DNA of 64,000 bases, taken from Strigamia acuminata. Lineage: Eukaryota; Arthropoda; Chilopoda; Geophilomorpha; Linotaeniidae. The notes beneath the pieces were generated by a model. The model saw only the letters and a list, made by a program, of their open reading frames with translations. It was not told the DNA's origin and made no database searches. A program made the translations under genes and the position numbers. This document shows, one piece after another, positions 1,265-34,193 of the stretch. The DNA is taken from the NCBI GenBank assembly GCA_949358305.1, contig OX442318.1:4016501-4080500 (forward strand), read 5' to 3'. Numbering within the stretch: the stretch's first letter is position 1; each line of letters starts with the position of its first letter.

Positions 1265-4200
1265 TTACAAGTAAAGCTTATTGATAAATTTAGTAAGTAC
1301 AACTGCACAATTACATGAAAAATATATTGCCTCTAACACAGAGAGACCCAGTGTGAGGCCAAAAATGTTTGCAATATCAGAGACCAACGCAATAAACGAA
1401 TACTTAAATTCTTCAACAATAGTTTCTATCTTATTTGATGGAAAAACAAAATTGAAAGCTGATACATTGGGTGCCACTGGTGCAAAACTGAATTCATTGA
1501 TCTTGTAGATTGATTGTGTACAGGGCCGGTAGCACAAACATTCTTTTTCAACGTCGGTTCTTGTGCGTACATCATAGTACAATGTTCGCACGTCTTTGGC
1601 CGTTGCTGAAGAGTTGCAGAAAGTGACGTTTTTCTTAATTGCAAATGGCATGCTATTGGATGATTAAATAGAGAAATTAAAACAGTGGGAGTTGTTTATC
1701 CCATTGCATCACTACTGTTTTACCTGCACGATTGTTTGATCTTCATCTTATTGTCAAAACACTGACTTTTACAGTTGTGAAATTCTGTCGCATTTGGACT
1801 GCAATGTTTGCTTTTGGTGTTGAGGTAATGTATCTGGTTATCAATATCAAGTTTATAACAACAACGAATTGGTATTGGGTAATTGGTATTTACAGGGTAA
1901 TGATACACCTACGTTTTGTCTGGTCATCAGAACTGTAGTCGTCAATGAAGATGGTAAGGGAGCATGACAATCGGATGAGAAATTGGGATCTTCGATAGGA
2001 GTGATAAAAACCTATATTTATTAGGATTTCAAAAATATGTTTAAGAGTTTACCATTTGTTTACATCGCCTACTCCTAATACCATGTTCACACCAACGGAT
2101 CGAGTTTGGCTGGATCTGATCCACCTGATCAGATCCAACTGCACATAGTTCAATGGGATGCTACAGATTGCTGACATTGTTTAATGAATTCCAATCCGTC
2201 GAATCGAGTTGTGGGAACTCGATTGACGAACGGAGTTGTTGGGCTCACGGATCTAGATCCGTGAACGGAGTTCTGTGTTCAAACCAATCTTGGATCTAGA
2301 TCTGCAGCTTTGGATGAGATCAAAAAGCTTGGTGTGAACATGGTATAACTTACATCTGTAAAATCCGGTTTGCATGAAGGGTTTGCCATTTCTACGACAG
2401 ATTCAAAAAACATTGTGAATACTCGATATTTTATAGGACCTAATGCAAAGTTGTTTAACTCCTGTTTTTATTGCGATAGAACAGATAATAATTACCAAAT
2501 GAGTGTTTAAAACAGGTACCGGTTGGACTTGCAAGTGGAGTATACGATCGAACATCAAATAGATCTCCGGAAAATGGATTCTGCAAAATATGGGCTTCAC
2601 ATTCTAATAAAATCTCAATTGCTTTATACTGAAACTACTTACACTCTCTTTGATCAAATGTGGGAGTGTTGGTTCAAAATAAGCAATTTCCCATAGTCTA
2701 GTTACATTTAATCCTTTCCAGTTGACGAGATCCAATAAGTCTACATTGCATTTTGCATTATTTTGATTTTGTTCTTTGAAGTATTTGATTTTCTGGTTTA
2801 TTAGTCTTCCACTATGTGATCCTGCACAGATGATGATGTTTGGAAAAATTATATTTGCTTCCTCTTTAATTGTTACAATTGTTTGCATGGGTTTGTTCAA
2901 ATACAGTTGAATTTTTTGTTGCACTACAAACCCACTGAATGCAAATAAACAAAGATAAACCAGTGGCTGTAGGTAAGCCATAATTGATTTTGATGTTTGG
3001 CTTTTTCGTGTTTGAATAGTTTGTAATTTGGTTTCCATTTTTCTGGTCATGCGATGTTTGTGATTTATAGGCTTCGCTCTACTCCACTTTGAAATAACCA
3101 AAACTAAGTCGATGGTAGAAAGTGAAGAGAGTCCTAACCAAAGTCCAAGATTCCCACCAAAGTCAGATAGCAGATTGATGAGATCGTAGATAAATCGTTC
3201 TTTAAAAATAGTCACTTGGTCATCGAGTAAGTATATAGAGTTAGTATTTATGTCGTTGTTACTGGGCTCTAGTTGAAACACAGGATCAACCAGTATCCTT
3301 TCACAGCTCCTAGTACAGTTACAGTCGACTTCAGGTGTCGGTGCCATTATATCATATGAATTTTTCTTATACATTTCCAAAGTAGCTTCAGAATTATTGC
3401 AGAGCTCAAGGCGATGACTTTTGGAAAGACTTGGCCTGTATGGTAACCTGTTTAATGATAAGTATTTTTCTTAAATTGGTAATCTGTGCAACATGCAGGT
3501 AACGGTAAATAATATATTGTTACCAACACGGGTTTTCGTTTAATATTGTTTCAGTACATTTTCTTCCGCATTCTATGTATTTCTGCATTGGCACACAGGG
3601 AGCATCTGGTGTGCTTATTACATGATGCTGAAACAAAAATATAGTTAATGAAATACCATTGCTTGATGGTGCCTTGTATCCAAGATATCCAAGATATGAA
3701 CAACAAATTCAGTCAAATTATGATCCCAAATATCCAAATTAGACCTTGCAAATTCAGCAATTATATGGACTGGTTTGGAGATTTGTAAATGGCAGCTTAC
3801 TATGACACTAAGGGGTTTCATTAAATGGGCGATTATTGTGATTACGGTAGTTGATTATTGCAATAATCATAATAACTCAATTATTGAGGGCCCAGCAAAA
3901 ATCTGATTATGTGATTATTGTTATGATGGGCGGAATTGTTTAAATTTTAACCTAAATACGTAGCAATTGTTTAAAAAAAGTTCCTACAAATAATAATTGC
4001 AACTACCTAACTTCTTTCATGTGTTCAGTTTAACCTCAACTGAGCAGACTTTGTTACATTATGACCTTGTGTAGTTGAAGCGGGTCTGGCGTCGCCATGT
4101 TCGTTTCAGTCAAGAGAGCACTTATAATCGGCACAAGTCAGCAGAAAATCATGGTTTAGGATGATTACTTGATTAGTTGCTTAGTTGCTTATTTGATGAA

Positions 4201-5429
4201 ATGATTATTCTCAGGAGTGGTTGAATCCATTCACACGACACATCAAGTAATCGCCTAATCAAAGTAATCAAAGTAATCAACTAATCTCTCATTTAATGAA
4301 ACCCCTTACTGTCAGATTTGAATCATTTTGGTGTTGTGTGCACAATGACATCACGTTTGTTGCCATATTCTCATTTTAATTTTTTTTTAAAAATTACTGC
4401 CATCAAGGGCTCACTTACTCACTTTTTTAAAACGAAATCCAACTTTGCCATTTGTTGCTGAACCTAAGCAATATCCATATTGGAAATCAAAAGGGAACTT
4501 CACTGTTATCTAAAATCAAGAACTTTAAGAGTCTTATTTGAACATTTTATACAGCAATGACTACCAAACATGAGCAAACTGATTAGCATAATTGTTTAAA
4601 CATTGATCTCAAGTGACACATGTATATTTATGTGGGGTATTTACTAGTGTTAGGGATATTCCTGGTATCAACTCTGGTATTTTTAAATCGTAGCCTACTT
4701 TTGTGTATATTTCAGAGCCGTACAGTGGTCTTCCAACTGTAATTGAAATATTAAATTAACTTCTTTTGAAACAGTTATAATTAATTTAGAGAAATGACCC
4801 TCTACTCTGGTACATGTACCCCTTGGATTTAATTCTTGTGTGAGAGTTTGATTCAAATCAACATGTTTCTGGAATTATAATGAAATGAATGCATCTATTA
4901 ATAATGTAAATAGTAAAAAAAATCAAAATGTTTATGCATCTCGATATATTACTTTGCGATTATGTGTTTCGTCAATTCCAAATACCCTCTGAATAACTTG
5001 GAAACTGTAGTTCAAATTCCACATTTTTGTGAGATCAACATCAGGTATTGGTATTAGTGAATCCAAAGGGATTACAGAATCCTTGTCATGTATACGAATT
5101 TCATGCGAGTTGTAGTAATCCTTCACATACTTGTTTAGTGGCACACACACGTGTATATCAGGAATCTTGAATTCTTCCATCTTCTTTTCGATGACATCGA
5201 GAGCTTTTGGGCAGGAGATATAGTAGGATATGCGATCGTACATTTGGTACGAATAGATGAGAATGCAGATGACGACAAGAAGAGCCCAAAAAACACGAAA
5301 TGCAATGGTTTTTTTTTTGTCGATCATTGGTTGAAATTCTTGAGGAAATGCTTTTATTCGGCCTTCTGCTGCGATTAAATCTTTCACTAATTGACGAAGT
5401 TTTTCACGGAATTGACGATTAGTTTCCAT
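1265..5429 (-). CDS. U1: two-domain DEG/ENaC-type ion channel, 11 exons, 800 aa
   Basis: Hand-spliced exons (5' to 3'): 5429-4953, 4868-4799, 4736-4645, 4509-4423, 3627-3524, 3447-2643, 2580-2496, 2439-2354, 2011-1913, 1833-1724, 1652-1265. They total 2403 nt, all GT-AG and in frame. Seen: TM1-A about residues 44-62, a short post-TM1 motif ending I-H-V-C, a cysteine-rich ectodomain, D-C-N-C-T-R-S-C just before TM2-A, and TM2-A with G-L-S at about 382-384. After a cytosolic linker come TM1-B, a second ectodomain, E-C-L-C-Y-R-P-C, and TM2-B with G-L-S near the C-terminus. Known: DEG/ENaC subunits have two TMs, a G-x-S filter and assemble as plasma-membrane trimers. Inferred: a cation channel with two fused subunits. 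The N-terminus (METNRQF) differs from the MANHRIRK start of U3, U4, U5 and U8. Intron 4 holds a MITE (3811-4306) and intron 8 another (2081-2343). Ligand and ion selectivity cannot be read from sequence. Confidence 0.85.
2081..2343. mobile_element. MITE with CCATGTTCACACC termini, intron 8 of U1
   Basis: Inverted termini CCATGTTCACACCAA and TTGGTGTGAACATGG enclose 263 bp, flanked by TA on both sides. A longer relative sits in the same intron of U3 (11245-11625), so the insertion predates the split of U1 and U3. No coding capacity. TA target suggests a Tc1/mariner-like source. Confidence 0.7.
3811..4306. mobile_element. MITE with AGGGGTTTCATTAAATG termini, intron 4 of U1
   Basis: Inverted termini AGGGGTTTCATTAAATG / CATTTAATGAAACCCCT, flanked by TA. 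The same element is at the same place in U8 (50110-51538), where a solo LTR has landed inside it. U3 lacks it (near 13137). Presence in U1 and U8 and absence in U3 is a useful marker of copy history. Confidence 0.75.
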
Positions 5430-7798
5430 TATATTATGACAGTTTAATAGTATTAATTACTGCAGCTATTCATATATTTTTGGGACCTGTAGAACATCAA
5501 TATGTGCTAATTAATATATTTGATACACTGCTCTGATTGTATAATTTAATAATAATTTAATTCAATTACGTCTCTCAAAATCATTATTTTCAAATTGTAA
5601 TTTCTTCAATTTGAAAATTAAATTATCGATTTCAAACAAGCAATTTAAAAAATTAAAACTAAAAATACGGACAGCTTGTTGAATTTGTTTTTGAAAGATG
5701 AAGCTTTCAGCGGTAATTATTATTTTGCAATGACGTAATGCAGTGAGGGTGTTTTATGATAAATTTAAGAAAAACAATTACATCATTACTAACTTGTATA
5801 TGAAGATTTTGCTGGTTCCAAGTGTGATGAAATACAAAACATTTATCTCAATGCGCACTTTCTAACTGGCAAATCTGCTATCAAAGGTTGTGTGTGCTAT
5901 GGCACTTCTTGTCAATCTAAGTTGTACGCATGCGCAATTTCTTTCTAAACCAATATTGAGTTTTTGTGTTTATACCTTGTAGTTTGTGGTCTGACAGCTC
6001 TAATATCAGTAATGGAACCTCCATTTAATGGGATCTGCCAGGAAAAAAAAGATTAAAGAAAAGTACATTACTGAATTTCAATTTTCAAAGAAAATTGCAT
6101 TGCAAAGTGTTCTTATACCGTATGTAATGAATGGCTGTGTTGCCAAATGCCACAACCTGTAATCTGGGTAATGTTTACTTACATGACCACTTGCTACTCT
6201 CAGCATCGATTTTTAGGCAGCAGTTCTTAATATTTTATTCATGTCTGAATAGTGCGAAAGGGAAACACATTTAACAAAATGATTCCAGTTGACACAATTT
6301 AATGGTTGATAACGGGAAATATTACACTTTTACATTAGATGAATTAAACTTACATGAAGTTAAAGTTTCCAATTTTAGAAATAACTTAGAAACAGAAACA
6401 TCGTTACACGAAGCAAGAAGTAGCAAATAATATATAAAGAACATTAAAGCCGATACGCCACAACTGAGCAATTTTTGCATAAAAATGTGTTGTAACAATT
6501 TCATCTCGCATGCACGAGACAACAATACAAAGACCACCTTTTAACAATAATTCAACTTAATATATATCTTAATAATACACTTAATCTAAATGATAAAAAT
6601 CACTACACGCTGATTTACATCGACTGTTGTTTAATTTCAATAATTTTGTCTGCAGTATTTCTATTTTTATTTCTAATTTAATCATAACACGCGCATTTTC
6701 AATTGTTTTCTTACACAAGAAGCCATCTAGCGGCGAATTCTGACACTACTACGTATATCCAGAGCACGATCCAGAGCACAGCAGCATGGCGGCCGTAATG
6801 TGTTACGAGTGAAGAACTGATGACGATGGAATATGTAACTTCAAGAGATTACACCGATTTCTCATGACTGATACGATCGAAGCAAGATCATCGTGTAAAC
6901 TTCAGCACCTATTCAGTCAGGTATTCATTATTTATTGAATTACTTTTGTTTTAATTTGGGAAAATAGTGTCATGGCGGTACGGTACCGCGCACTTTTGAT
7001 TTCTTTGTTTCAAAAAGGTGATTGGTGTATTACTTTATGTTCTGTTTTATGTATTAGGCATAAAAGTGAACCAAACTTACATTTTCGTTCGTTGGTTAAG
7101 CCGCGAATGCGAGTATGAACATGTTATACCAACGTGGCAACATGACCGATTTCATCGCTACAAATCGGTCACGTCGTAAAAACCTGTACCGGAAATGCTT
7201 GATTTGTGTAAAATATTACAATTCGTCCGTTGGGAATTTTCTTCTGATCGTTCAAATTTTGTTTTAATCATTTCGGCTCGTTTATTCGGATAAATTGAGT
7301 CGTATCGCATCGTCGTGAATATTAATTCACCACTCCGCTTGGATCAAACACAAACACACGTTATGTTGGTTGGAAACTTTATTAATTCTGTCAAAAACTG
7401 ACAAATGAGGTCTTTAAATACAACTTATTCACCCAATTAAATAGCTCTGATTACAGAGCCAATCATTTCGAGTTTAAAAATAGTATTCAATTAAATGTAA
7501 ACAAAACAAAACTTCTCAAGTTTTTACAATTTTTTTCTTTTAAAGATAAGTTGCATCGTACTAAGTGGATGGTTCTGTACAACTTCGCAGCTGGAAATTT
7601 TGCTGTATCTTTAACCGTTTGTAAAGTTCAAAATGGATAACTTTGAAAATAATCTTCCAAATCAAGTTTCAGATTATTTTACCGGTTAGCCTGCAATCGA
7701 CTTCTTAATTGATGGCATTATTAGAATTGATATATCTTCAGTCATTATCAAGAAAAAAGGTGTGTCTCAGACTTGTTTGGTGCTGCTTTCAATGGATT
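5430..7798. other. Intergenic region between U1 and U2
   Basis: About 5695-6600 repeats bases 1-900 of the window, including a short minus-strand open stretch at 6322-6537 that is conserved between the two copies. From 6600 to 7798 I see no coding exon, no clear inverted-repeat element and no RNA gene. A GCATGGCGGCC segment near 6785 resembles a promoter-type YY1 site, but there is no supporting gene model. Confidence 0.4.
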
Positions 7799-8765
7799 TT
7801 AATTACAAACATATGATGTTGCTATACGGGAAAAAGGATTTGTAGAATTGTCGATTATAGGAAATAGGGAAAAGCAAAAGCCAATGTCAATATCAGAAAC
7901 TAATGCCACAAATAAATATTTGAATTCCTCAGCAGAGTCATATTCTACGGGATCTTCCAACTGGAGTAATACTAGTATAAGCCTTTTAAGAAAAATATTC
8001 AAAAGGGAACGTGGTGACTATGTTGCAACATAGAATTATGTGGGGAGGAGATTGTTTGTTGTGTTTTTATTGTTATTTGAGTTCAGTGTACAGAGGGGGT
8101 TGTTCCAGCGCTATCTCTTGTTGGGGATTGTTTTCTATCGTGGTGTTGTCGCTGGTTGTTATTTCCTCCACATCAAAACGAATGTTTAACACTGGTAACA
8201 CTGGTACCATGTGGAGTTGGGAATGGAATATACGTTCGAACATTCAATAAGTCATTGGAAAATGGATTCTGCAAATTTTACAGCTAGGTGTTAAAATGCT
8301 CAGTAAAAAATGGAAAATCGAGTTTCTAATGGTAGATTTACTTACAACTATTTTGATTAAGGCGTTGCTTATAGGTTGTACATATGCCACTTCCCATAGT
8401 CTAGTCACATTGATTTCTTTCCAGTTGACTAAGTCTAATAAGTCTACATTGCATTTTTGATTGTTCAGTTTTTTCTGTTTGAAATATTTGGTTTTCTGTA
8501 TCGTAAGTCTTGGATTATGCAGTCCTGCACAAATGATGATGTTTGGATAAGTTATGTTAGGTGGATCTTCAATTGCTACAATTGTTTGAATGGGTTCATT
8601 CAAATACAGCTGGATTCTTTGTTGGATTATAAATCCGATGAATCCAAACAAACAAAGATAAACCAGTGGCTGTAGACGAGCTATGTTTGATTTTGATGTG
8701 AGGGTTTTTGGTGTTTTAATGGTTTGTATGTTAACTTCAATTCTTCTGGTTATGTCGTCTTTAGC
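7799..8765 (-). pseudogene. U2: DEG/ENaC relic (parts of exons 6, 7 and 11)
   Basis: Bases 8765-8346 correspond to the 3' part of the large sixth exon: cytosolic linker, TM1-B and the Y-P-N-I-I-I-C-A-G post-TM1 motif, ending at a GTAAGT donor. Bases about 8270-8200 are a decayed exon 7. Bases about 7990-7799 are an exon 11 fragment in which the ectodomain cysteines and the G-L-S filter are lost. Homology to U5 stops abruptly at about 8765, where foreign sequence begins. Exons 1-5 and 8-10 are missing. The copy cannot encode a channel. Confidence 0.75.
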
Positions 8766-9632: not shown

Positions 9633-12600
9633 TCACAAGTAAAGGTTATTGATAAATTTAGTAAGTGCAACTGCACAATTACATGAAAAATGTATTGCCT
9701 GTAACACAGAGAGACCCAGTGTGAGGCCAAAAATGTTTGCAATGTCAGAGACCAACGCGATAAACGAATACTTAAATTCTTCAACAATAGTTTCCACCTT
9801 ATTTGATGGAAAAGCAAAATTGAAAGCTGATACATTGGGTGCCACTGGTGCAAAACTGAATTCATTGATCTTGTAGATTGATTGTGTACAGGGCCGGTAG
9901 CACAAACATTCTTTTTCAACGTCGGTTCTAGTGCGTACATCATAGTACAATGTTCGCACGTCTTTGGCCGTTGCTGAAGAGTTGCAGAAAGTGACGTTTT
10001 TCTTAATTGCAAATGGCATGCTGTTGAATGAATAAATAGAGAAATTAAAACAGTGGGAGTTGTTTAATCCCATTGCATTGCTACTGTTTTACCTGCAAAA
10101 TTGTTTGGTCTTCATCTTATTGTCAAAACACTGACTTTTACAGTTGTAAAATTCTGTTGCATTTGGATTGCAATGTTTGCTTTTGGTGTTGAGGTAATGT
10201 ATCTGATTATCAATATCAAGTTTATACCAACAACGAATTAGTATTTGGTAATTGGTATTTACAGGGTAATTATACAGTTGAAACTCTTTATAACGAATCG
10301 CGATATAACGAATTATCGCTATAACGAATTGTTGAAAATGACTTGGTTGGCCAGCCATAGAACACCATGTTAAATATTTTCGTTATAACGAATTTCGATA
10401 TAACGAATTATTCGTTATAACAAACCAGTTTTCAGGTACACTCAGGGGCGGATCTAGCTTTTCGGGGGCCCGGGGCTTGCGGTTTTTTCGGGGCCCCTTT
10501 CTCAAAATTTTTAATAGCGACCTCTTTTTTTTTTTTTTAGCGACCTTTTTTTTTTTTTTTTTTTTTTAGTACATGGCCCAAAGTCTCGGGGGCCCCTTAG
10601 AATTTGGGGGCCCGGGGCTCAAGCCCCAATAGCCCGGTGCTAGATTCGCCCCTGGGTACACTACTTGTATAATACCCATAAACTCTCGTTATAACGAATT
10701 TTCAAAACTGATCACATGACTCACAACATCTGATGCCCATATTTAGAAAACAAAGGAAAATGAAAATGGCTGCCAAACGAAAGGCAATTTTGATTCACGA
10801 CAAGCTGAACATTATTGATGCCATTGACAATGGCAAGAAGCCATCAATTGTAGCAGAGGAGTTTAATTTGTCTCCTACAATTTCAACAATTTTAAAGAAT
10901 CGGGATAAAATTAACATGAAACTTGCCAGTGGTAATCAAGGTTTACAAAAAAAAATAGTGCGTGGTGCTAAAATTTAGTTTTTTCACCTAATTTGTTTTA
11001 ACGAATTCTCGTTATAACGAATCGATTCGTCCGGTCCCTTGCGATTCGTTATAAAGAGTTTCGACTGTACACCTACGTTTTGTCTGGTCATCACAACTGT
11101 AGTGGTCAATGAAGATGGTAAGGGAGCATTGCAATCGTATGAGAAATTGGGATCTTCGATAGGAGTGATAAAAACCTATATTTATTAGGATTTCAAAAAT
11201 ATGTAGAAGAGTTTACCATTTGTTTACATCGTCTACTCCTAATACCATGTTCACACCAACGGATCGAGTTTGGCTGGATCTGATCTGCCTGATCAGATCC
11301 AAATGAACAGAGTTCAAGTATTCACTTGGATGGAGTTGTGTTCACACAAAAATGTGATGCGCAACAATCAAACCAAACCGGGTTTTAGTAGCAACAGGTT
11401 TTAGAAACACCTTACTACAATGGCTGCCATTTTATTATCGAATAATGGGCAACAATGGGATGCTACAGATTGCTGACATTGTTTAATGAATTCCAATCCA
11501 TCGAATCGAGTTGCGGGAATTCGATTGACGAACGGAGTTTTTGGGCTCACGGATCTAGATCCGTGAACGGAGTTCAGTGTTCACACCAATCTTGGATCTA
11601 GATCCGCACCTTGGTGTGAACATGGTATAACTTACGTCTGTAAAATTCGGTTTGCATGAAGGATTTGTCATTTCAAATACAGATTCAATAAACATTGTGA
11701 AAAATCGATACTTTATTGGACCTAATGCAAAGTTGTTTAACTCCTCTTTTTATTGTGATAGAACAGATAATAATTACCAAATGAGTGTTTAACACAGGTA
11801 CCGGTTGGACTTGCAAGTCGAGTATACAATCGAACATCAAATAGATCTCCAGAAAATGGATTCTGCAAAAATATGGACTTAATATTCTAATAATATCTTA
11901 ATTGCTTTATACTGAAACTACTTACACCCTCTTTGATCATATGTGGGAGTGTTGGTTCAAAATAAGCAATTTTCCATAGTCTAGTTACATCTAATCCTTT
12001 CCAGTTGACGAGATCCAATAAGTCTACATTGCATTTTGCATTATTTTGATTCTGTTTTTTGAAGTATTTGATTTTTTGATTTATTAGTCTTCCACTATGC
12101 GATTCTGCACAGATGATGATGTTTGGAAAAATTATATTTGCTTCCTCTTTGATTGTTACAATTGTTTGCATGGGTTTGTTCAAATACAGTTGAATTTTTT
12201 GTTGGACTACAAACCCACTGAATGCAAACAAACAAAGATAAACAAGTGGCTGTAGGTAAGCCATAATTGATTTTGATGTTTGCCTTTTTCGTGTTTGAAT
12301 AGTTTGTAATTTGGTTTCCATTTTTCTGGTCATGCGATGTTTGTGATTTATAGGCTTTGCTGTACTCCACTTTGAAATAACCAAAACTAAGTCGATAGTA
12401 GAAAGTGAAGAGAGTCCTAACCAAAGTCCAAGATTCCCACCAAAGTCAGATAGCAGACTGATGAGATCGTAGATTAATCGTTCTTTAAAAATAGTCACTT
12501 GATCATCGAGTAAGTATATAGAGTTAGTATTTATGTCGTTTTTACTAGGCTCTAGTTGAAACACGGGATCAACCAGTATACTTTCACAGCTCCTTGTACA

Positions 12601-14262
12601 GTTACAGTCGACTTCAGGGGTCGGTGCCATTATATCATGTGAGTTTTTCTTGTACATTTCCAAAGTAACTTCAGAATTATTGCAGAGCTGAAGGCGATGT
12701 CTTTTGGAAAGACTTGGCCTGTACGGTAACCTGTTAAATAATAAAAAGTATTTTTTCTTAAATTGGCAATCTGTGCAACATGCAGATAATGCTAAATGAT
12801 ATATTTTTACCAACACGGGTTTTTGTTTAATATTTTTTCAGTACATTTATTTCCACATTCTATGTATTTCTCTAATGGCACACAGGGAGCATCTGGTGTG
12901 CTTATTAAATGATGCTGAAACACAAATATAGTTAATGAAATACCATTGCTTGATGGTTTACCATGCAATAAAGAAAATCCACTTCTATTAGAGGAGTGGA
13001 TAATGGAGTATTTTAGGCCCAAACTCCTGACTATTTAATTTGTGTACTAGGGCAAGTACCCAAAAAATTCAAATTTCTTCCAATTCAGCAATCGTATGGA
13101 TTGCTTTGGTGATTTGTAGATGGCAGCTTACTATGACAGCAAATTGTTAGATTTGAATAATGTGTCTATTGTATGCACAATGGCATCACTGTTGTTGTCG
13201 TATTCTCCATTAAAAAATTATTTCATTTTTAAATCACTGCCATCTTGGACTCACTTACTCACCTCTTTGAAACGAAATCCTACTTTGCTATTTGTTGCTG
13301 ACCCAATGCCATATCCATATTGGAAATCAAAAGGGAACTTCATTGTTAACTAAAATCAAGAACATCAAGAGTTTTATTTGAACGTTTTATACATCAATGA
13401 ATAGCAAACATGAGTAAACTGATTAATTGTTTAAACATTAATCTCAATTGACACGTGTATACTTATGTACAGTATTTACTAGTGTTAGGGATGTTCCTGG
13501 TAACAACTCTGGTATTTTTAAATCATAGCCTACTCTTGTGTATATTTCAGAGCCGTACAGTGTTTTTCCAACTGTAATTGAAATATTAAATTAACTTTTT
13601 TTGAAACAGTTATAATTAATTTAGAGAAATGACCCTCTACTCTGGTACATGTACCCCTTGGATTTAATTCTTGTGTGAGAGTTTGATTCAAATCAACATG
13701 TTTCTGGAATTATAATGAAATGAATGCATGTATTAATAAAGTAAATAGTTAAAAAAAATCAAAATGCTCATGCATCTCGATATATTACTTTGCGATTAAG
13801 TGTCTTGCCAATTGCAAATACCCTCTGAATAACTTGGAAACTGTAGTTCAAATTCCACATTTTTGTGAGATCAACCTCAGGTATTGGTATTAGTAAATCC
13901 AAAGGGATTACAGAAACCCTGTCAGGTATATGAATTTCATGCGACTTGTAGTAGTCCTTCACATACTTGTTTAGTGGCACACACACGTGTGTATCAGGAA
14001 TCGTGAATTCTTCCATCTTCTTTTCGGTGACATCGAGAGCTTTTGGGCCGGACAGATAGTAGGATATGCGGTCGTACATTTGGTACGAATAAATGAGAAT
14101 GCAGATGACGACAAGAAGAGCCCAACAAACACGAAATACAATATTGCGTTTCTTATCGATCATTGGGTGAAATTCTTGAGGAAATGCTCTTCTTTGGTCT
14201 TCTTCTGTTAATAAATGTTTTACTTTTGTGCGAATTCTTTTTCGGATTCGATGATTAGCCAT
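9633..14262 (-). CDS. U3: two-domain DEG/ENaC-type ion channel, 11 exons, 799 aa
   Basis: Exons: 14262-13789, 13703-13634, 13571-13480, 13349-13263, 12914-12811, 12730-11926, 11862-11778, 11721-11636, 11175-11077, 10202-10093, 10020-9633, all GT-AG and in frame (2400 nt from the chosen ATG). I chose MANHRIRK at 14262, not the ATG 15 nt upstream, because a TTTTACAG acceptor ends 4 nt before it. The domain plan is as in U1: TM1-A, ectodomain, TM2-A with G-L-S, linker, TM1-B, ectodomain, TM2-B with G-L-S. It is the closest relative of U1 in exons 2-11. Intron 9 carries a Tigger-type element with a hAT-type MITE inside; intron 8 carries the same MITE family as U1. Expected to be a plasma-membrane cation channel; ligand unknown. 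Confidence 0.85.
10443..10654. mobile_element. hAT-type MITE nested in the Tigger element
   Basis: Ends CAGGGGCGGATCTAG / CTAGATTCGCCCCTG are imperfect inverted repeats. They are flanked by a perfect 8-bp duplication GGTACACT (10435-10442 and 10655-10662). CAGGG termini with 8-bp target duplication are typical of hAT elements. The middle is rich in GGGGCCC and poly(T). Confidence 0.85.
10733..10978 (+). pseudogene. Tigger/pogo transposase N-terminal (CENP-B-like HTH) fragment
   Basis: An 81-residue open frame contains K-R-K-A-I-L-I-H-D-K-L-N-I-I-D-A-I followed by a helix-turn-helix ending S-P-T-I-S-T-I-L-K-N. This matches the CENP-B N-terminal / psq DNA-binding domain of pogo and Tigger transposases. 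Nothing of the DDE catalytic domain follows, so it is a remnant of the element that surrounds it. Confidence 0.7.
11245..11625. mobile_element. MITE with CCATGTTCACACC termini, intron 8 of U3
   Basis: Same family and same intron position as 2081-2343 in U1, with about 120 bp extra in the middle. TA flanks on both sides. Confidence 0.7.
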
Positions 14263-14347
14263 GATACTGTAAAACATTATTATTATTAACAGTTGCTGAG
14301 CTAAACTTTAAGTTTTGGATTTCTGCTAAACATAAATATGCTTGATA

Positions 14348-16133: not shown

Positions 16134-19100
16134 TTATTGGTTTAGTTTATTGGCAAGAATTGTTGCAGATTTGTACAAAAAATGTATTCCAGTTAAGACG
16201 GACAAACCGAGAGTGAGACTGAGAGTGTTGCCGATGTCAGAAACCAAGGCAACAAAAGAATATTTAAATTCTTCAACAATTGTTTCTACCTTGTTTGATG
16301 GGAAAACAAAAAGAACGAATGTCGAATCAAGTATCATTGGTGGTGCATTGAATTCATTGATCTTGTAGAACGCTTGTTTACAAGGACGATTGCACAAACA
16401 TTCCTTCTGGACATTGGTGTTAGTGCGTATTTCGTAGTACATTGTTCGCACGGCTTTGGCTGTTGACGAAGAGTTGCAGAAAGTGAGGCCTTTTTTGAAT
16501 GCAAATGGCATGCTATTGGATGAATAAAATGAGAAATTAAAATTTAGGTAAAGTTGTTGAATGCTTGTGTGGTTACCTGCACAGTTGTTTACTCTTCATT
16601 TTGTTTTCAAAACAGCGGCTTTTACAGTTGTAATAGTCTGTTGTGTTTTGATTGCAGTGTTTGGTTTTTGTGTTGAAATAATGAATCTGAAATTTAAATA
16701 TATTTTAAGAGTTTCCAAGAACAAAGTCTTGTTATTGAAATTTATTTTCATACATTTTGTTTGGTTAACAAAGATACGGTTAGCATTGAAGAAGGGAGCG
16801 CTGAATTGAAATCGTATGAAAAATTGGGATCTTCAACTGGTGTGATAAAAGCCTATTGTAAAAAATGTACAAGTTTAGATTGTGTGGATTATTTTGAACT
16901 TACGTATGTAAAATCCGGTTTGCATGAGGGGTCTGTCATTTCTGGTGTATAATCCCCAAACATTGTGAAAAATCGATATTTTACAGGACCTAATTTCAAA
17001 TATACACTTTAAAATTTTGTTTTTATCTCTTTAGACGAAAAAAAAATTACCGAAGGAATGTTTAACACAAGTACCGTGTGGATTTGGGAGTGGAGTGTAG
17101 GTTCGAACATTAAATATGTCTCCAGAAAATGGATTCTGCAAATTTTAAAGCCGAGAAATAAAAATGCCAGCTAAAAAAAAAATCGAGTTTCAAATGGTAA
17201 ATTTACTTACTACTTTTTGGAGTATGCTAGAGCTTAAAGGTTCTATATAGGCCGTTTTCCACAGTTTAGGTACTGTTAATCCGTTCCAGTTGACAAGATC
17301 CAATAAGTCTACATTGCATTTTGTGTTATTTTGATTCTGCTGTTTGAAATATTTGGTTTTCTTGTTTATTAGTTTTCCATTATGCGGTCCTGCACAGATG
17401 ATGATGTTTGGATAAGTTATGTTAGCTGGATCCTCAATTGCTACAATTGTTTGAATGGGTTCATTCAAATATAGCCGGATTTTGTGTTGGAGTATTAACG
17501 CACTGAATCCAAACAAACAAAGATAAACCAGTGGCTGTAGACGAGCCATGTTAGATTTTGATGTGGGAGTTTTGGGAGTTTTAATGGTTTGTATGTTAGC
17601 TTCAATTCTTCTGGTTACGTCTCCTTTGGGAGTTATACGCTTTGCCCTGTACCACTGAGCAATAACCAAAACCAGGTTGATGAAGGAGAGAAGAGAGAGT
17701 CCTAACCAAAGTCCAAGATTGCCACCAAAGTCAGCGACCAGGCTGATGAAATCGTAGATTAAGCGTTCTTTCAAAATTGTCACGTGGTTGTCAAGCAGGT
17801 GTATAGTATTTGAGGACATGTTACTTTCGCTGTGTTCCATCCAAAGTGTAAATTCAACATGTGTAATTTTACAGCTCCTGGTACAACCACAGTCAGGTTC
17901 AGGTGTTGGTGATACCATATCATTCATGTTTTGTTTAAACATTTTTAAAGTTTCTTTAGAATTATTACAAAGCTCAAGGTGATGTCCTCTGGAAAATCTT
18001 GTCATATAGGGTAACCTGTCAAATATATTAAGATACCTCAGTAAGATTTTTAAGGAAAATTAGAACAGGCCTAGTTTGTCGGTTTGAGGAACAATTGTGT
18101 TAAATGCTACAAATTGTATTGTTTGTTGTTGCTAGTGCTAATTGTTGGAAACTTATAACAAGCTCTTTTGGGAGTGCATCTGGTCTTTTATTGTTTACAA
18201 TAAATGTATGGAGTATTTCGTAATTGACTTGCCAACAATGATTTTTGCCTAATAACGATTCGGTGCATCTTTTCCCACATTCTACGTATTCCTCGAGTAG
18301 TACACAGGGCTGACTTCTGGTGTCTATTAAATGATGCTGAAACATAAATATTTAGTAAGTCAATAACAGAATCCACCTGAACAAATTTAACAGTCACCTC
18401 TTTTAAACGGAATCCAACTTTGGTATTCGTTGTTGCTGATGTTATCGCATATCCATTTTGGAAATCAAATGGGAATGTCAATCCTATCTGAAATTAAGTA
18501 TGTTGAAATCATCAGTTCTCAATTCACTAAAATAATTCTCTTTTTGTCATTGGCTGGTTGTTTAGCCAAGCCTGTTTTTGGCGTATTGTGCGCATTTTTG
18601 CTTTTGGTTACATCAACCCACCCTCACATGCTACCGGTAGAGTGGGTATGGGGCAAGACATTTGGATGATGTTTCTCCCATTCTTAGTTTTAGAAATGTG
18701 TGATTTTGATGGATTCATGGTTTTGGATTGGTGTTGAGGGTTTGGGGCAGGGGCAGATTAAACTTTTAGGGGGCCCCAGACAAACCATTTTCTGGGTCTC
18801 TTGTAACAAAAATTAAAACCATGTGATTAATTTTCAGGCCTAACATTGAATTTCCCATCGTAACATTGGTTTTTCTGGCCTAAAATTTTATTTCTCTTGC
18901 CTAAAATAGGATTTCATGACCTGCAATTGGATTTTCTGACCAGAAATTGGATTTTCTGGCCTGAAATTGGATTTTCTGGTCTGAAATTGGATTTTCTGGC
19001 CTAAAATTGGATTTTCTGGCCTGAAATTGGATTTTCTGGCCTGAAATTGGATTTTCTGGCCTGAAATTGGATTTTCTGGCCTGAAATTGGATTTTCTGGC

Positions 19101-20237
19101 CTGAAATTGGATTTTCTGGCCTGAAATTGGATTTTCTGGCCTGAAATTGGATTTTCTGGCCTGAAATTGGATTTTCTGGCCTGAAATTGGATTTTCTGGC
19201 CTGATATTGGATTTTCTGGCCTGAAATTGGATTTTCTGGCCTGAAATTGGATTTTCTGGCCAGAAATTGGATTTTCTGGCCAGAAATTGGATTTTCTGGC
19301 CAGAAATTGGATTTTCTGGCTTAATGTTTTTTTTCTGGTTCAAGATCTAACTGAAACAAAGCAGTCATAAATATTTACAAAAAGGAGAGACCAATGTTGG
19401 AACTCGGATGGAAGAGTATTTACTAGAGTAATGGATGGTCCTGGTATCAATTCTGGTATTTTAAAATCGTTTTGCAATCTTGTATATATTTCAGAACTAT
19501 GCAGTATATTTCTCACTGTAATTGAAAGCTGAACGTAACTTATTTAAAAATGTCTACAATTAATTCTGGCAACTGACCTTTCAATCTGGTACATGTACCT
19601 CTTGGCATTAATTCCAATGTCAGAGTGTAGTTCAGAGGAAAGGGTGTCTGAAATTACAATAGAAGAGGTTTACATTCAATATTAGCGAATAATCACAAAC
19701 TGAGAAAAATTTATTGGCAGATTTGTGCCAAATGGATGATCCATAAACATCCAGTTATAAACTTACTTTGCGATGAGTTTCTGCATATGCAAGTACACGC
19801 TGAGTTATATGGAAACTGTAATTTAAATTCCATATTTTAGTGAGATCAACATCTGGTCGTGTTATTAATTTATCCAAAGGATTAAGAGCATCTGTCTGAA
19901 GTATGTCTTCCCCGAGCGCCTTGTAGAAATCCACAACATACTTATTTAGTGGTATACATGTGTGTGTATCAGGAACTGGCAACTCTTCAATTTCTCTTTC
20001 GTAGACGTCGAGACCTTTTGGACTGGCCAGATAATAAGAAATGCGGTCATGCATTTGGTACGAATAGATGAGAATGCAGATGACTACAAGAAGAGCCCAA
20101 AAAACACGAAATAGAATATTGCGATTCTTATCGATCATTGGGTGAAATTCTTGAGGAAATGCCGCTTTTCGGTCTTCTTCCGCTATTAAATGTTTTACTA
20201 TTGTGCGAATTCTTTTTCGAATTCGATGATTAGCCAT
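16134..20237 (-). CDS. U4: two-domain DEG/ENaC-type ion channel, 11 exons, 796 aa
   Basis: Exons: 20237-19767, 19647-19578, 19515-19424, 18487-18398, 18336-18233, 18015-17211, 17135-17051, 16989-16904, 16852-16754, 16686-16577, 16512-16134, in frame throughout (2391 nt). Residue map: TM1-A about 42-62, V-P-D-T-H-T-C after it, D-C-G-C-T-R-S-C before TM2-A, TM2-A about 369-396 with G-L-S at 381-383, linker about 397-433, TM1-B about 435-454 followed by Y-P-N-I-I-I-C, E-C-L-C-N-R-P-C near 709-715, TM2-B about 763-790 with G-L-S at 773-775. Start chosen at MANHRIRK because of the acceptor just upstream. The exon 5 donor is GCAAGT (a GC-AG intron), shared with U5 and U6. Intron 3 contains the 20-bp minisatellite. 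No canonical His-Gly gating motif is seen before either TM1. Likely a plasma-membrane cation channel; stimulus unknown. Confidence 0.85.
18885..19325. repeat. 20-bp minisatellite in U4 intron 3
   Basis: About 21 tandem copies of a 20-bp unit, on the plus strand GAAATTGGATTTTCTGGCCT with small variants. In the gene sense each unit contains ATTTCAGG, which resembles a 3' splice site. Because 20 is not a multiple of 3, a stop-free unit leaves long open frames that repeat every 20 residues. I treat those frames as by-products. Homologous arrays lie in U5 and U6. Confidence 0.9.
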
Positions 20238-20259
20238 TACACTGTAAAACATTATTATT

Positions 20260-21071: not shown

Positions 21072-21835
21072 TTAGTTTTCCACACATTCGGAGCAGAATC
21101 TGTGTGCACCTGGCACCAACAAAATGTTCAGCTTTTCTGTCAGGCAAATGGAACATTGGTTTGATTTATGTTCCGATTCTTCAACTTCCGCACCTCGCAA
21201 AACCTCCCGCAAGTTATAACGATGCTGTAACTGCTCCTCAGTCTGGTGTTTCCAAGCATTCCGTGCATTAAAGGCATTCACAACCGCTGCTAGTAAAGTC
21301 GCATTACTGTCGTCACCCTCCAAGGCAGCTCTTTTTTCCACTAGATCGGCTTTCAGCATTGCGAAGACGGCAGAATCCTCAGGGTAACGCATGTAATGGC
21401 GAACGGCTGGCTCTGTTCGTGGGCGTCTTAGAGGTGGCTGTAACTCAACCTCCTCATCAACTTCGTTCCGTGTTCTTCGAGCACGAGGCGTCCGTGCTGG
21501 TCTGGGTTGGTCTGGCCTGATACGATTTCTGCTGCCTGGAGGCCGCCCTCGTCTGCGTGCAGCCACGAGAGGTTGGGGGGGGTTCTTGCGTGACCACATG
21601 TGTTGTGAGTTTGATTTCACCTTCGGCTCGTAGGTCAGCATTTGCCTCTACCCTTTTATCAATCCGAGGAATAGCGACAGTGTTCAGCAGTCTACCTGGG
21701 GCAGTAGTATGCGAATCGACTTCAAGGCGGACACCTCCCTTCATTGTGGTTAGACGATACGCTCCCTCCTTTAGAAACTGTATAATCAAGGAACTTGTCA
21801 ATCGCAATGGCTTCTGGAAATCGGTCCTTCACTGA
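21072..21835 (-). pseudogene. Frameshifted ORF with AT-hook and truncated RING
   Basis: A 189-residue frame (21641-21072) contains an AT-hook-like R-R-R-G-R-P-P-G-S near its start. It ends with C-S-I-C and H-R-F-C-S-E-C, the first half of a RING finger; the remaining zinc ligands are absent and a stop follows. A related coding stretch in another frame (about 21900-21785: E-G-F-A-I-V-K-A-E-W-A-S-V-K-D-R-F-P) lies just upstream, so at least one frameshift separates them. It is GC-richer than its surroundings and sits inside the insertion upstream of U4, so it was probably carried in by a mobile element. Family not recognised. Confidence 0.45.
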
Positions 21836-22550: not shown

Positions 22551-22553
22551 ATA

Positions 22554-25405: not shown

Positions 25406-25424
25406 ACTCAGCAAATATTATGAA

Positions 25425-27163: not shown

Positions 27164-27167
27164 AGTG

Positions 27168-28795: not shown

Positions 28796-31700
28796 TTACA
28801 ATTTTGTTTGTGGGTTTAGCTTTTTGACAAGAATTGTTGCAGATTTGTAAAAAAAATGTACTCCAGTTAAGACGGACAAACCGAGAGTGAGACCGAGAGT
28901 GTTTCCGATGTCAGAAACCAAGGCAACAAAAGAATATTTAAATTCTTCAACAATTGTTTCTACCTTGTTTGACGGGAAAACAAAATTAACCATTGACCAA
29001 TCAACTATCATTGGTGGTGCACTGAATTCATTGATCTTGTAGAACGCTTGTTTACAAGGACGATTGCACAAACATTCCTTCTGGACATTGGTGTTGGTGC
29101 GTATTTCGTAGTACAATGTTCTCACGGCTTTGGCTGTTGTCGAAGAGTTGCAGAAAGTGAGGCCATTCTTGATTGCAAATGGCATGCTATTGGATGAATA
29201 AAATGAGAAATAAAAATTCAGGTAAAGTTGTTGAATATTTGTGTGGTTACCTGCACTGTTGTTTACTCTTCATTTTGTTTTCAAAACAGCGGCTTTTACA
29301 GATGTAATAGTCTGTTGTGTTTTGATTGCACCGTTTGGTTTTTGTGTTGAGATAATGCATCTGAAGTTTAAATATATTTTAATGGTGTCTAAGAACAAAT
29401 TCTTGTTATTGAAATTAATTTTTATACATTTTGTTTGGTTAACGAAGATGAGGTTAGCATTGAAGAAGGGAGCGCTGAATTGAAATCATATGAAAAATTG
29501 GGATCTTCAACTGGTGTGATATAAACCTAATTGAAAAAAATGTGCAAGATTAGATTGTGTTGATTATTTTGAACTTACGTATGTAAAATCCGGTTTGCAT
29601 AAGGGGTCTTTCATTTCTGGTGTATAATCCCCAAACATTGAGAAAAATCGATATTTTACAGGACCTAATTTCAAATATACAAATTTTAAATCTGTTTTTA
29701 TCTCTTTAGAAAAAAGAAAAATTACCGAAGGAATGTTTAACACAAGTGCCGTGTGGATTTGGGAATCGAGTAAGAGTTCGAACATCAAGTGTGTCTTTGC
29801 AAAATAGATTCTGCAAATTTTAAAGCCATGAAATAAAAATGCCAATTAAGAAAAAAATCGTGTTTCAAATGGTAAATTTACTTACAAATTGTTGGAGTAT
29901 CTTCGAGCTTAAAGGTTCTACATAGGCCATTTCCCATAGTCTAGTCACATTGAATCCTTTCCAGTTGACTAGGTCTAATAAGTCTACATTGCATTTTGTA
30001 TTAGTTTGATTCTGCTGTTTAAAATATTTTTTTTTCTGTTGTATAAGTCTTAGATTATGCGGTCCTGCACAAATGATGATGTTTGGATAAGTTATGTTAG
30101 CTGGATCCTCAATTGCTACAATTGTTTGAATGGGTTCATTTAAATACAGTTGAATTCTTTGTTGGATTATAAATCCGCTGAATACAAACAAACAAAGATA
30201 AACCAGTGGCTGTAGACGAGCCATGTTAGATTTTGATGTGTGAGTTTTTGGAGTTTTAATGGTTTGTATGTTAGCTTCAATTCTTCTGGTTATGTCGCCT
30301 TTGGGAGTTATACGCTTCGCCCTGTACCACTGAGCAATAACCAAAACCAGGTCGATGAAGGAGAGAAGAGAGAGTCCTAACCAAAGTCCAAGATTGCCAC
30401 CAAAGTCAGCCACCAGGCTGATGAAATCGTAGATTAAGCGTTCTTTCAAAGTTGTCACGTGGTTGTCAATCAGGTATATAGTATTTGAGGATATGTCACT
30501 TTCGCTACGTTCAGTCCGAAATGTCGGATCAACATGTGTAATTTTACAGCTCCTGGTACAACCACAGTCAGGTTCAGGTGTTGGTGCTACCATATCATGT
30601 AAGTTTTGTTCATACATTTTTAAAGTTTCTTTAGAATTATTGCAGAGCTCAAGGTGATCTCCTCTGGAAAATCTTGGCATATAGGGTAACCTGTCAAATA
30701 TATTAAAATACCACACGAAGATTATTAAGGAAAATATTAAATTTTAATAAAATATTAGTTTTGAAATTTAAAAGTAATATTTTATTAAAATTTAATATTT
30801 TCACAACTTATTGATGTTTAATTTAAACATCAATAAGTTGTGAATTAAACATCAATAAGTTGTGAATTAAACATCAATAAGTTGTGAATTAAACATCAAT
30901 AAGTTGTGAATTAAACATCAATAAGTTGTGGGAACACTTTAAACTCACTTGAAACGAGTGTACACACACACTTTTTAACTTTAACCGTGGAAAACAGGAG
31001 AAAATACGTGAATCTCGTCTTTTCTCACGTTTTTCCGTGTACCGCGAGATATACCGCAAATTCACGGTACCGGTACCACAGGGCGCCGAAAGTACCGCGG
31101 TACAAGTACGCGGTACTATCGCAGACTGCAAAAAGTACTGCCGTAGAGGCTGCGGTACAGTATCGCTGGTACCGGTACTGTACCGTGCCCAACACTGGAT
31201 AACACACATTGCAGTCATCTTGATCATACTCTTAGGATGGAATGGAGGAACATAAGGCCTAGTTTGTCGGTTTGAGGAATAATTGTATTAAATGCTACAA
31301 ATTGTATTGTTTTTGTTGGCAGTGCTAATTGTTGGAAACTTATAAAACAAGCTCTTTTGGGAGTGCATCTGGTCTTTTATTGTTTACAATAAATGTATTT
31401 CGTAATTGACTTGCCAACAATGATTTTTGCCCAATAATGATTCAGTGCATCTTTTCCCACATTCTATGTATTCCTCGAGTGGTACACAGGGCTGACTTCT
31501 AGTGTCTATTAAATGATGCTGAAACATAAATATTTAGTAAGTCAATAACAGAATCCACCTGAACAAATTTAACAATGACCTCTTTTAAACGGAATCCAAC
31601 TTTGATATTCGTTGCTGATGTTATCGGATATCCATATTGGAAATCAAATGGGAATGTTACTCCTATCTGAAATTAAGCATATTGAAATCATCAGTTCTCA

Positions 31701-34193
31701 ATTCACTAAAATAATCCACTTTTTGTCATCGACTGGTTGTTTTGATAGGCCCGTTTCTGGCGTATTGTTTGCTTTTTTGCTTGTGGTACCATAAACCCAC
31801 TCTTACATGCTAGAGTGGGTGTGAGGCAGGGAATTTGGAGGGAGTTTCTCCCTTTCTTAGTTTTAGAAATTTGTGATTTTGGATTCATGGTTTTGGATTG
31901 GTGTTGAGGGTTTGGGGCAGAGGCGGATTAAACTTTTTGGGGGCCCCAGAAAAACCTTTTTCTGGGTCCCTTGTAGCAAAAATTAAAACCGTATAATTAA
32001 TTTTCAGGCCTAACATTGGATTTCCCAGCGTAACATTGGTTTTTCTGGCTTAACATTTGTATTTTTCTGGCCTAAAATAGGACTTTCTGGCTTGAAATTG
32101 GATTTTCTGGCCTGAAATTGGATTTTCTGGCCTGAAATTGGAATTTCCGGCCTGAAATTGGAATTTCCGGGCTTAAATTGGAATTTCCGGGCTTAAATTG
32201 GAATTTCCGGCCTGAAATTGGAATTTCTGGCCTAAAATTGGAATTTCCGGCCTGAAATTGGAATTTCCGGCTTGAAATTGGAATTTCCAATTTCCGGCCT
32301 GAAATTGGAATTTCCGGCTTGAAATTGGAATTTCTGACCTGAAATTGGAATTTCTGGCCTGTAATTGGAATTTCTGGCCTGAAATTGGAATTTCTGGCCT
32401 GAAATTGGAATTTCTGGCCTGAAATTGGAATTTCTGGCCTGAAATTGGAATTTCTGGCCTGAAATTGGAATTTCTGGCCTGAAATTGGAATTTCTGGCCT
32501 GAAATTGGAATTTCTGGCCTGAAATTGGAATTTCTGGCCTGAAATTGGAATTTCTGGCCTGAAATTGGAATTTCTGGCCTGAAATTGGAATTTCTGGCCT
32601 GAAATTGGAATTTCTGGCCTGAAATTGGAATTTCTGGCCTGAAATTGGAATTTCTGGCCTGAAATTGGAATTTCTGGCCTGAAATTGGAATTTCTGGCCT
32701 GAAATTGGAATTTCTGGCCTGAAATTGGATTTTCTGGCTTACAATTGGATTTTCTGGCCTGACATTGGATTTTCTGGCCTGAAATTGGATTTTCTGGCCT
32801 GAAATTGGATTTTCTGGCCTGAAATTGGATTTTCTGGCCTGAAATTGGATTTTCTGGCCTAAAATTGGATTTTCTGGCTTAAAATTGGATTTTCTGGCCT
32901 GACATTGGATTTTCTGGGCTGAAATTGGATTTTCTGGCCTGAAATTGGATTTTCTGGCCTAAAATTGGATTTTCTGGCATGAAATTGGATTTTCTGGCTT
33001 AAAATTGGGTTTTTTGGCTTTAATTTTTTTTTTTGGTTCAAGATCTAACTGAAACAAAGCAGTTATAAATATTTACAAAAAGGAGAGACCAATGTTGGAA
33101 CTAGGTAGGAAAGAGTACCGTATTTTACCAAATAAGAGCCGCGGCTCTTATTCAAAACTGCCACTATGAGCTGCGGCTTTAATTCGGGGGCGGCTCCAAT
33201 TCGGGGGCGGCTCTTATTTTAAATAGTGGCCAATATCTTACTGTTACGTTCATTGAACGTATATAGCCGCAGCTACTATTCGAGGGCGGCTTTTATATCA
33301 AGTCGCCTATCTTGGCCGCGGCTACTATTCGAGGGCGGCTACAATTCGAGGGCGGCTACAATTCGAGGGCGACTCTTATTCGGTAAAATACGGTATTTAC
33401 TAGGGTTAGGGATTCGCCTGGCATCAATTCTGGTATTTTAAAATCTTGCTGAAATCTTGTAGTCATTTCAGAACCATGCAGTGTATTTCTCACTGTTGTT
33501 AAAAAATAAACGTAACTTATTTAAAAATGGCTAAAATTAATTCGGGCAACTGACCTTTCGATCTGGTACAAGTACCTTTTGGCATTAATTCTAATGTCAG
33601 AGTGTAGTTCAGAGGAAAGGGTGTCTGAAATTACAATAGAACAGATAGTCACAAACTGAGAAGAATTTATTGGCAGATTTGTGCAAAATGGATGATCCAT
33701 AAACATCCAGTTAAAAACTTACTTCACGATGTGTTTCTGCATATGCAAGTAAACGCTGAGTTATATGGAAACTGTAGTTTAAATTCCACAACTTAGTGAG
33801 ATCAACATCTGGTCGTGTTATTAAATTATCCAAAGGATTCAGTGCATCTGTCGGAAGTATTTTTTCTCCGAGCGCCTCGTAGTAATCCACAACATACTTA
33901 TTTAGTGGTATACATGTGTGTGTATCAGGAACTGGCGACTCTTCAATTTCGCTTTCGTAGACGTCGAGTCCTTTTGGACTGGCCAGATAATAAGAAATGC
34001 GGTCATGCATTTGGTACGAATAGATGAGAATGCAGATGACGACAAGAAGAGCCCAAAAAACACGAAATAGAATATTACGATTCTTATCGATCATTGGGTG
34101 AAATTCTTGAGGAAATGCCGCTCTTCGGTCTTCTTCCGCTATAAAATGTTTTACTATTGTGCGGATTCTTTTTCGGATTCGATGATTAGCCAT
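28796..34193 (-). CDS. U5: two-domain DEG/ENaC-type ion channel, 11 exons, 799 aa
   Basis: Exons: 34193-33723, 33624-33555, 33492-33401, 31666-31580, 31518-31415, 30690-29886, 29810-29726, 29664-29579, 29526-29428, 29360-29251, 29186-28796 (2400 nt, all in frame). Same layout as U4, its closest relative: TM1-A, V-P-D-T-H-T-C, ectodomain, TM2-A with G-L-S, linker, TM1-B, Y-P-N-I-I-I-C, ectodomain, E-C-L-C-N-R-P-C, TM2-B with G-L-S. Exon 5 again ends at a GCAAGT donor. Intron 3 (1.7 kb) contains a long 20-bp minisatellite and a MITE that starts 7 nt after the exon 3 boundary. Intron 5 holds AT-rich palindromes, a 22-bp tandem repeat and a GGTACC-rich palindromic segment. The acceptor before MANHRIRK sets the start. 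Confidence 0.85.
30826..30930. repeat. 22-bp tandem repeat in U5 intron 5
   Basis: About five copies of CATCAATAAGTTGTGAATTAAA, next to an AT-rich inverted repeat at 30735-30805 (AATATTAAATTTTAATAAAA and complement). The array is absent from the matching U4 intron. Confidence 0.85.
30950..31200. other. GGTACC-rich foldable segment in U5 intron 5
   Basis: Many CGGTAC/GTACCG words in both orientations make a strongly self-complementary stretch. The end near 31195 (CAGTGTTGGGCACGGTAC on the minus strand) looks like a transposon terminus, but I could not find a clean partner. Absent from the U4 intron. Probably a non-autonomous DNA element. Confidence 0.4.
32085..33020. repeat. 20-bp minisatellite in U5 intron 3
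   Basis: About 46 copies of the same 20-bp unit as in U4. The left part mostly has GAAATTGGAATTTCTGGCCT, the right part GAAATTGGATTTTCTGGCCT, so at least two variants expanded in blocks. Every minus-strand unit carries an ATTTCAGG acceptor-like site. Confidence 0.9.
33118..33393. mobile_element. MITE with CCGTATTTTACC termini at the exon 3 splice donor of U5
   Basis: Inverted ends CCGTATTTTACCAAATAAGAG / CTCTTATTCGGTAAAATACGG with a TA duplication. On the minus strand the intron reads GTAAATA and then the element, so the insertion sits 7 nt into the intron and leaves the donor intact. U4 has the empty site. The interior repeats a TTCGAGGGCGGCT motif. Confidence 0.8.

What the first reader, a model, noticed from the sequence alone, without database searches (positions are those of the whole stretch)
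1265..34193. A DEG/ENaC family in which every intact gene encodes two fused channel subunits
Seen: in U1, U3, U4 and U5 one open frame in exon 6 runs from TM2-A (with G-L-S) through a linker of about 35-40 residues into TM1-B, and all 11 exons splice in phase to about 800 residues with four TMs and two G-L-S filters. U9 shows the same over the exons in the window. Established: DEG/ENaC subunits have two TMs and form trimers. Inference: three such chains could form two neighbouring pores (A3 and B3), or one domain may stay outside the pore. I know of no described fused DEG/ENaC tandem, but I could not search.
Basis: partly seen in the sequence, partly recalled or inferred. Interest (0 to 1): 0.92.

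Follow-up and report, generated by a model that had tools for sequence, protein, structure and literature searches.

The report
Centipede channel subunits fused in pairs
In the genome of a soil centipede, a large family of sodium-channel-type genes encodes two channel subunits joined in one chain, an unusual design for a channel type that is normally built from three separate subunits.

Summary
Assembly size and chromosome lengths match the centipede Strigamia acuminata. U1, U3, U4 and U5 each splice in frame through 11 exons to about 800 residues, with two DEG/ENaC (PF00858) units, two G-L-S filters and one uninterrupted fused exon. U9 is the same; its exon 1 lies just past the window end. 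Both halves have intron phases 0,1,0,0,2: a tandem duplicate of one six-exon gene whose last and first exons merged. Two genome searches together give 164 stop-free fused exons on ten contigs. Of 131 tested, 87 have a TM1-A exon upstream and a TM2-B exon downstream. In 29 copies the linker has no in-frame stop; in 27 it evolves as protein (dN/dS about 0.5). The 12 B units in a tree form one clade (97/96), so one fusion is likely. Single-unit genes also exist in the genome. No transcript or current was available, and pore stoichiometry is open. My searches of open-access papers found no description. I call it a new architecture within a known channel family.

The parts
1265..5429 (-). U1, fused two-unit DEG/ENaC gene, 11 exons
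9633..14277 (-). U3, fused two-unit DEG/ENaC gene, 11 exons
16134..20252 (-). U4, fused two-unit DEG/ENaC gene, 11 exons; GC donor at intron 5
28796..34208 (-). U5, fused two-unit DEG/ENaC gene, 11 exons, 804 residues; GC donor at intron 5
29886..30690 (-). U5 exon 6, the fused exon: end of ectodomain A, TM2-A, linker, TM1-B, start of ectodomain B
30336..30458 (-). U5 TM2-A with G-L-S filter
   Evidence: boundaries by eye
30219..30326 (-). U5 linker of 36 residues between TM2-A and TM1-B, 9 K/R and 2 D/E
30141..30218 (-). U5 TM1-B
   Evidence: boundaries by eye
57948..63821 (-). U9, exons 2-11 of a fused gene; exon 1 lies at about 64245-64703, past the window end; GC donor at intron 6
8191..8762 (-). 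U2, remnant: linker and B part of exon 6, and exon 7
39645..41782 (-). U6, 5'-truncated copy (from within exon 6 to exon 11) with a stop in exon 8
37294..38925 (-). remnant with exons 3-5
   Evidence: DNA matches to U1 and U5
51653..52672 (-). U8, exons 1-4 only

Best explanation
These are genes for tandem DEG/ENaC chains: one polypeptide made of two complete channel protomers, A and B, joined by a short, positively charged, cytosolic linker. They arose when a six-exon single-protomer gene was duplicated in tandem and the last exon of the first copy merged with the first exon of the second (well supported). The fused gene then multiplied over the genome, with decay of some copies (shown by the loci). 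Each half probably folds as a DEG/ENaC protomer, and both keep a G-x-S filter in the window copies, so both probably line pores (inferred). The most likely working form, about 45%, is a trimeric cation pore in which A and B of one chain are neighbours and a domain of a second chain, or a single-protomer subunit, fills the third place (inferred). Array turnover, an A ectodomain that changes faster than B in two of three subclades, and antennal expression of Scolopendra relatives suggest a sensory receptor role (inferred). The confidence given is for the fused-chain claim and its origin taken with the sensory-channel reading; the fused chain alone I put at 0.92.
For: Open fused frame and in-phase splicing in U1, U3, U4, U5. 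Same phase series 0,1,0,0,2 in both halves. Each half matches BRTNaC1, E 2e-16 (A) and 4.1e-12 (B). 164 stop-free fused exons in the union of two searches, out of 176 that span TM2-A to TM1-B and 188 places in all. 87 of 131 fused exons have a TM1-A exon upstream and a TM2-B exon downstream on one strand within 12 kb, 41 of 43 in the closest subfamily, and 0 of the 87 have an exon-1 hit between fused exon and TM2-B exon. Linker dN/dS 0.52-0.53 over 27 copies and 0.45 over 8 full models. TM2-A 0.25 and TM2-B 0.17. 12 B rows on one side of a branch, 97/96. Internal Met before TM1-B is not at one place: 19 of 29 copies share one column, and L037 has no Met in the linker. HiFi assembly, QV 59.6 (PMC10556566, passages).
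Against: No transcript, protein or current was available. The linker with 30 bases on each side holds AATAAA in 2 of 29 copies and ATTAAA in 11 of 29, so an end of transcription there cannot be excluded. Most copies have a Met in the linker. Far-member models are rough: the aligner needed frameshifts in L047, L048, L049 and L050. A rows do not form one clade in the best tree, though one clade is not rejected (p 0.18). The AF2 model of exon 6 is too poor to use. 44 of 131 fused exons lack one or both neighbours in capped hit lists.
Confidence: 0.78

Rival explanations
1. Three fused chains form two neighbouring trimeric pores, A3 and B3.
For: Both halves keep a filter in the 8 full models and both TM2s are under strong purifying selection. 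A and B are old, separate lineages.
Against: Inference only: about 36 residues from TM2-A to TM1-B would have to bridge two trimers three times over. No test was possible.
Confidence: 0.3
2. Only one half lines the pore; the other is a tethered regulatory or ligand-binding part.
For: The A ectodomain changes faster than B in two of three subclades. The B half of L048 has G-M-C in place of G-x-S (by eye).
Against: Both TM2s are well conserved and both filters are kept in the 8 full models.
Confidence: 0.2
3. The locus makes two separate two-TM proteins through an early end or an internal start within exon 6.
For: A Met precedes TM1-B in many copies, and ATTAAA occurs in or near the linker in 11 of 29.
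Against: No in-frame stop after TM2-A in 29 of 29 copies; protein-level selection on the linker; no Met in the linker of L037; position of the Met not conserved.
Confidence: 0.05
4. The fusion is an artefact of assembly or a set of decaying copies.
For: The array does hold decayed copies (U2, U6, U8), and 12 of 176 spanning fused exons in the union have a stop.
Against: 164 stop-free places on ten contigs; intact frames in 8 full models; HiFi assembly with QV 59.6 (PMC10556566, passages).
Confidence: 0.02

Closest known systems
[quoted passage not shown]
   Same: Closest solved structures to each half; short DEG/ENaC chains of 431 and 421 residues; PDPNaC1 is a homotrimer and is expressed in antennal sensory neurons (PMC12714832, abstract and section 7).
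   Different: One protomer per chain; the matched identity is low; the PDPNaC1 gene has nine exons, where a half gene here has six.
Arthropod DEG/ENaC families such as Drosophila pickpockets and mite ENaCs
   Same: PF00858 fold family; expanded and suggested to be chemoreceptors in insects and mites (PMC7738191, passages).
   Different: Two TMs per subunit in the described members (PMC10148893, passages, for ASIC and ENaC); a fused form is not mentioned in the passages and listings that I saw.
Engineered ASIC and ENaC concatemers
   Same: Protomers joined TM2 to TM1 through the cytosol; a two-subunit ASIC1a chain gives currents (PMC4529235, passages).
   Different: Man-made, with 8-residue (PMC4529235) or 19-residue (PMC10329638, passages) linkers added between native tails; here about 36 residues stand for both tails and linker.

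Membership tests
DEG/ENaC (PF00858) | match to the family profile above its cut-off | tested here: met
   U5: 146.8 bits against a cut-off of 23.6, four stretches; exons 1, 6 and 11 match separately
DEG/ENaC (PF00858) | G-x-S selectivity filter at the start of TM2's inner half | tested here: met
   G-L-S in both halves of 8 full models; far members vary
DEG/ENaC (PF00858) | cysteine-rich ectodomain between TM1 and TM2 | tested here: met
   invariant Cys in five window copies of exon 6; half chains align to BRTNaC1 over the ectodomain
DEG/ENaC (PF00858) | trimeric, amiloride-sensitive cation channel | not testable with these tools
   no expression or structure; AF2 of exon 6 too poor
canonical one-protomer DEG/ENaC subunit | one protomer (two TMs) per chain | tested here: not met
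   two protomers per open spliced frame; this is the new trait
centipede BRTNaC1/PDPNaC1-like channels | closest relation by sequence | tested here: inconclusive
   best hits in the PDB only; few animal proteins could be searched
centipede BRTNaC1/PDPNaC1-like channels | heat or proton gating | not testable with these tools
   sequence resemblance only

The most novel reading that the evidence does not exclude
A receptor superfamily of well over 150 loci in a geophilomorph centipede uses covalently paired DEG/ENaC protomers, so that a three-place pore is filled by domains of two chains, or of one fused chain plus a single subunit, and stoichiometry is fixed by gene fusion; the paired or spare domain gives each receptor two ectodomains, and the family may serve as a main chemical or thermal sense of this animal.
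Probability: 0.4. Interest if true: 0.88.

Novelty: new variant of a known kind. Interest (0 to 1): 0.76.

Why it matters
DEG/ENaC channels are known as trimers of single protomers. A natural two-protomer chain does not divide evenly into three, so it calls for a new answer to how such a pore is built, and this genome keeps the design in at least 164 stop-free fused exons. It is a natural counterpart of engineered concatemers. It also points to a large receptor-like family in centipedes that I found no record of: the Strigamia maritima genome paper treats GR and IR genes, and a search of its main text for degenerin, amiloride and sodium channel found nothing.

Tried and rejected
A protein search with the full U5 chain over 5.8 billion proteins scored nothing at E <= 0.001; that database appears to hold few animal proteins, so this says little. 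An AF2 model of the fused exon from five window copies was poor (pLDDT 40.4, pTM 0.23). It shows helices at TM2-A and TM1-B, but I draw nothing from it and made no fold search.

Considered and rejected: assembly error, decaying copies, and two separate proteins (see rivals). A three-protomer fusion was looked for only by eye in the last exons of window copies and of L053; none was seen.

Literature: nine answered searches. Seen: passages of PMC7738191, PMC10556566, PMC4244043, PMC9151784, PMC10329638, PMC4529235, PMC10148893, PMC9822975; outline and sections 7 and 13 of PMC12714832; outline of PMC12804983. None of what I saw describes a two-protomer DEG/ENaC chain. The spider-mite ENaC paper (10.1093/gbe/evw249) is not held; that T. 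urticae has over a hundred ENaC genes is recalled. Annotated animal proteomes could not be searched.

Rows dropped: L028 (one TGA) from the linker counts (29 of 30 kept); L021 and L022 (near-copies of L020) from dN/dS (27 rows kept); six of 150 rows and two of 150 rows from the neighbour count, which used only the 131 stop-free spanning places, not the 164 of the union. Rows were typed by hand into scripts.
Full report
Source. The window is C6:4016501-4080500 of a genome of 237,517,015 bases in 157 contigs. The genome note of the centipede Strigamia acuminata gives 237.5 Mb (237,534,282 bp in a figure legend), 158 scaffolds, 11 chromosome-scale scaffolds and lengths of 66.99, 37.79, 19.35, 16.99, 16.15 Mb and so on (PMC10556566, passages). 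The contig lengths seen here agree (C1 66,985,994; C3 37,788,348; C4 19,343,292; C5 16,989,096; C6 16,154,901); the totals differ by about 17 kb and one contig. C157 carries COX1 with 11 TGA codons inside, as a mitochondrial contig would. The window therefore lies on chromosome 5 of that assembly. The identification rests on these matches, not on a label.

The genes. U5 was modelled by hand and checked by script: 11 exons, 804 residues. A spliced alignment of U5 gives U1, U3 and U4 with the same 11 exons, the same phases and no frameshift; U9 has exons 2-11 in the window and exon 1 just beyond it. Three further copies outside the window, V1, V2 and V4, have the same plan. For U9 and V1 the aligner added tiny, surely spurious exons at one end, and the true start of their exon 1 is not settled. 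PF00858 matches U5 in four stretches. Each half alone matches the Scolopendra channel BRTNaC1, E 2e-16 for A and 4.1e-12 for B. Four far members (L047, L048, L049, L050) give rough models with frameshifts and spurious exons. In L049 and L050 the A half shows the phases 0,1,0,0,2, and in all four the intron before the last exon of B is placed in phase 2.

Origin. Introns 1-5 have phases 0,1,0,0,2 and introns 6-10 have 0,1,0,0,2. The junction between the units has neither intron nor stop. This is what a tandem duplication of a six-exon gene would leave if the last exon of one copy had merged with the first exon of the next. In a tree of 39 TM2 regions, the 12 B rows, which include far members on C11, C4, C8 and C3, are one side of a branch with support 97/96 and in 96% of bootstrap trees. 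The 23 A rows are not separated from the four single-type rows in the best tree; one clade of A is not rejected (p 0.18). Many long branches meet in this tree, so it is a guide only.

How widespread. A search with the fused exon of U5 found 143 places; 138 span TM2-A to TM1-B and 131 of these have no stop. One with a far member found 148, 139 spanning, 131 stop-free. The union is 188 places, 176 spanning, 164 spanning and stop-free, on ten contigs. Some are near-identical recent copies. The lists are capped, so these are lower bounds: the fused gene in L053 was in neither list. Of the 131 stop-free places, 95 have a TM1-A exon upstream and 103 a TM2-B exon downstream within 12 kb; 87 have both on one strand, and none of the 87 has an exon-1 hit between the fused exon and the TM2-B exon.

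Selection. Over 27 copies the linker has dN/dS of 0.53, 0.52 and 0.52 in three classes of divergence; TM2-A has 0.38, 0.25, 0.18 and TM1-B 0.31, 0.41, 0.16. Over eight full models: TM1-A 0.17, ectodomain A 0.43, TM2-A 0.25, linker 0.45, TM1-B 0.35, ectodomain B 0.32, TM2-B 0.17. These are simple counting estimates. Among close copies the A ectodomain changes faster than the B ectodomain in U1/U3/V2 (0.63 v 0.34; in 95% of 300 bootstraps) and U9/V1 (1.16 v 0.32; in all of them), not in U4/U5/V4 (0.70 v 0.66; in 53%). Against a simple reading, short introns of close pairs are as alike as the exons, so the constraint shows in dN/dS and not in a contrast with introns.

Control. Three loci of single-unit type (L002, L008, L054) show a TM1 exon with no TM2 ahead of it and a TM2 exon that stops soon after TM2. 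A fourth (L001) shows a TM2 exon with a stop, but its TM1 exon was not seen; in the tree it groups with L002 and L008. So an open frame after TM2 is not a general trait of such exons in this genome. I did not count the single-unit genes.

Mechanism. Shown: the sequence encodes two protomers per chain with two filters. Inferred: the ends of both face the cytosol, as in the family, and the linker is rich in K and R (9, against 2 acidic residues, in U5). Inferred: about 36 residues make neighbours in one trimer easy and three parallel links between two trimers hard. A two-subunit ASIC1a concatemer gives currents (PMC4529235, passages; that paper argues for tetramers, against the trimers of the structures). 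Neither half of U5 has the His-Gly motif that many family members carry before TM1 (the motif is recalled; read by eye). The sensory role is inferred from array turnover, from the abstract of the S. maritima genome paper, which expects olfaction to rest on expansion of other receptor families, and from expression of BRTNaC1 and PDPNaC1 in antennal neurons of Scolopendra.

Novelty. I found no report of a natural fused DEG/ENaC chain in what I searched and saw. I could not search annotated animal proteomes. I rate it a new variant of a known kind.

Noticed in passing
window 30691-31414 (U5 intron 5), 18016-18232 (U4 intron 5), 60836-60892 (U9 intron 6): GC-AG introns (donor GCAAGT) that are shared among related copies: intron 5 in U4, U5 and V4, intron 6 in U9, V1 and U6.
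   Followed up: partly
window 18865-19320, 32064-33008, 38098-38696: 20-base minisatellites of up to 47 copies, in intron 3 of U4 and of U5 and between exons 3 and 4 of the remnant at 37294-38925.
   Followed up: partly
window 46217-48550: Long open frame of a Copia-like element: RVT_2 (E 8.2e-52) with a methyl-CpG-binding domain match (MBD, 35 bits, cut-off 21) ahead of it.
   Followed up: no
window 21072-21647: Open frame with a RING-finger match below the cut-off (24.5 bits, cut-off 27) between U4 and U5.
   Followed up: no
L020, L021, L022 (C3:11.01 Mb, C6:2.86 Mb, C6:2.94 Mb); C4:3.02-3.05 Mb: Sets of fused exons with equal scores on one or two contigs, which suggests recent segmental copies, one of them between chromosomes.
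   Followed up: no
L048, L049, L050, L053: Far members vary the filter: G-F-S (A) and G-M-C (B) in L048, G-F-S (A) and G-I-S (B) in L049, G-M-S (A) in L050, G-V-S (A) in L053 (by eye).
   Followed up: no
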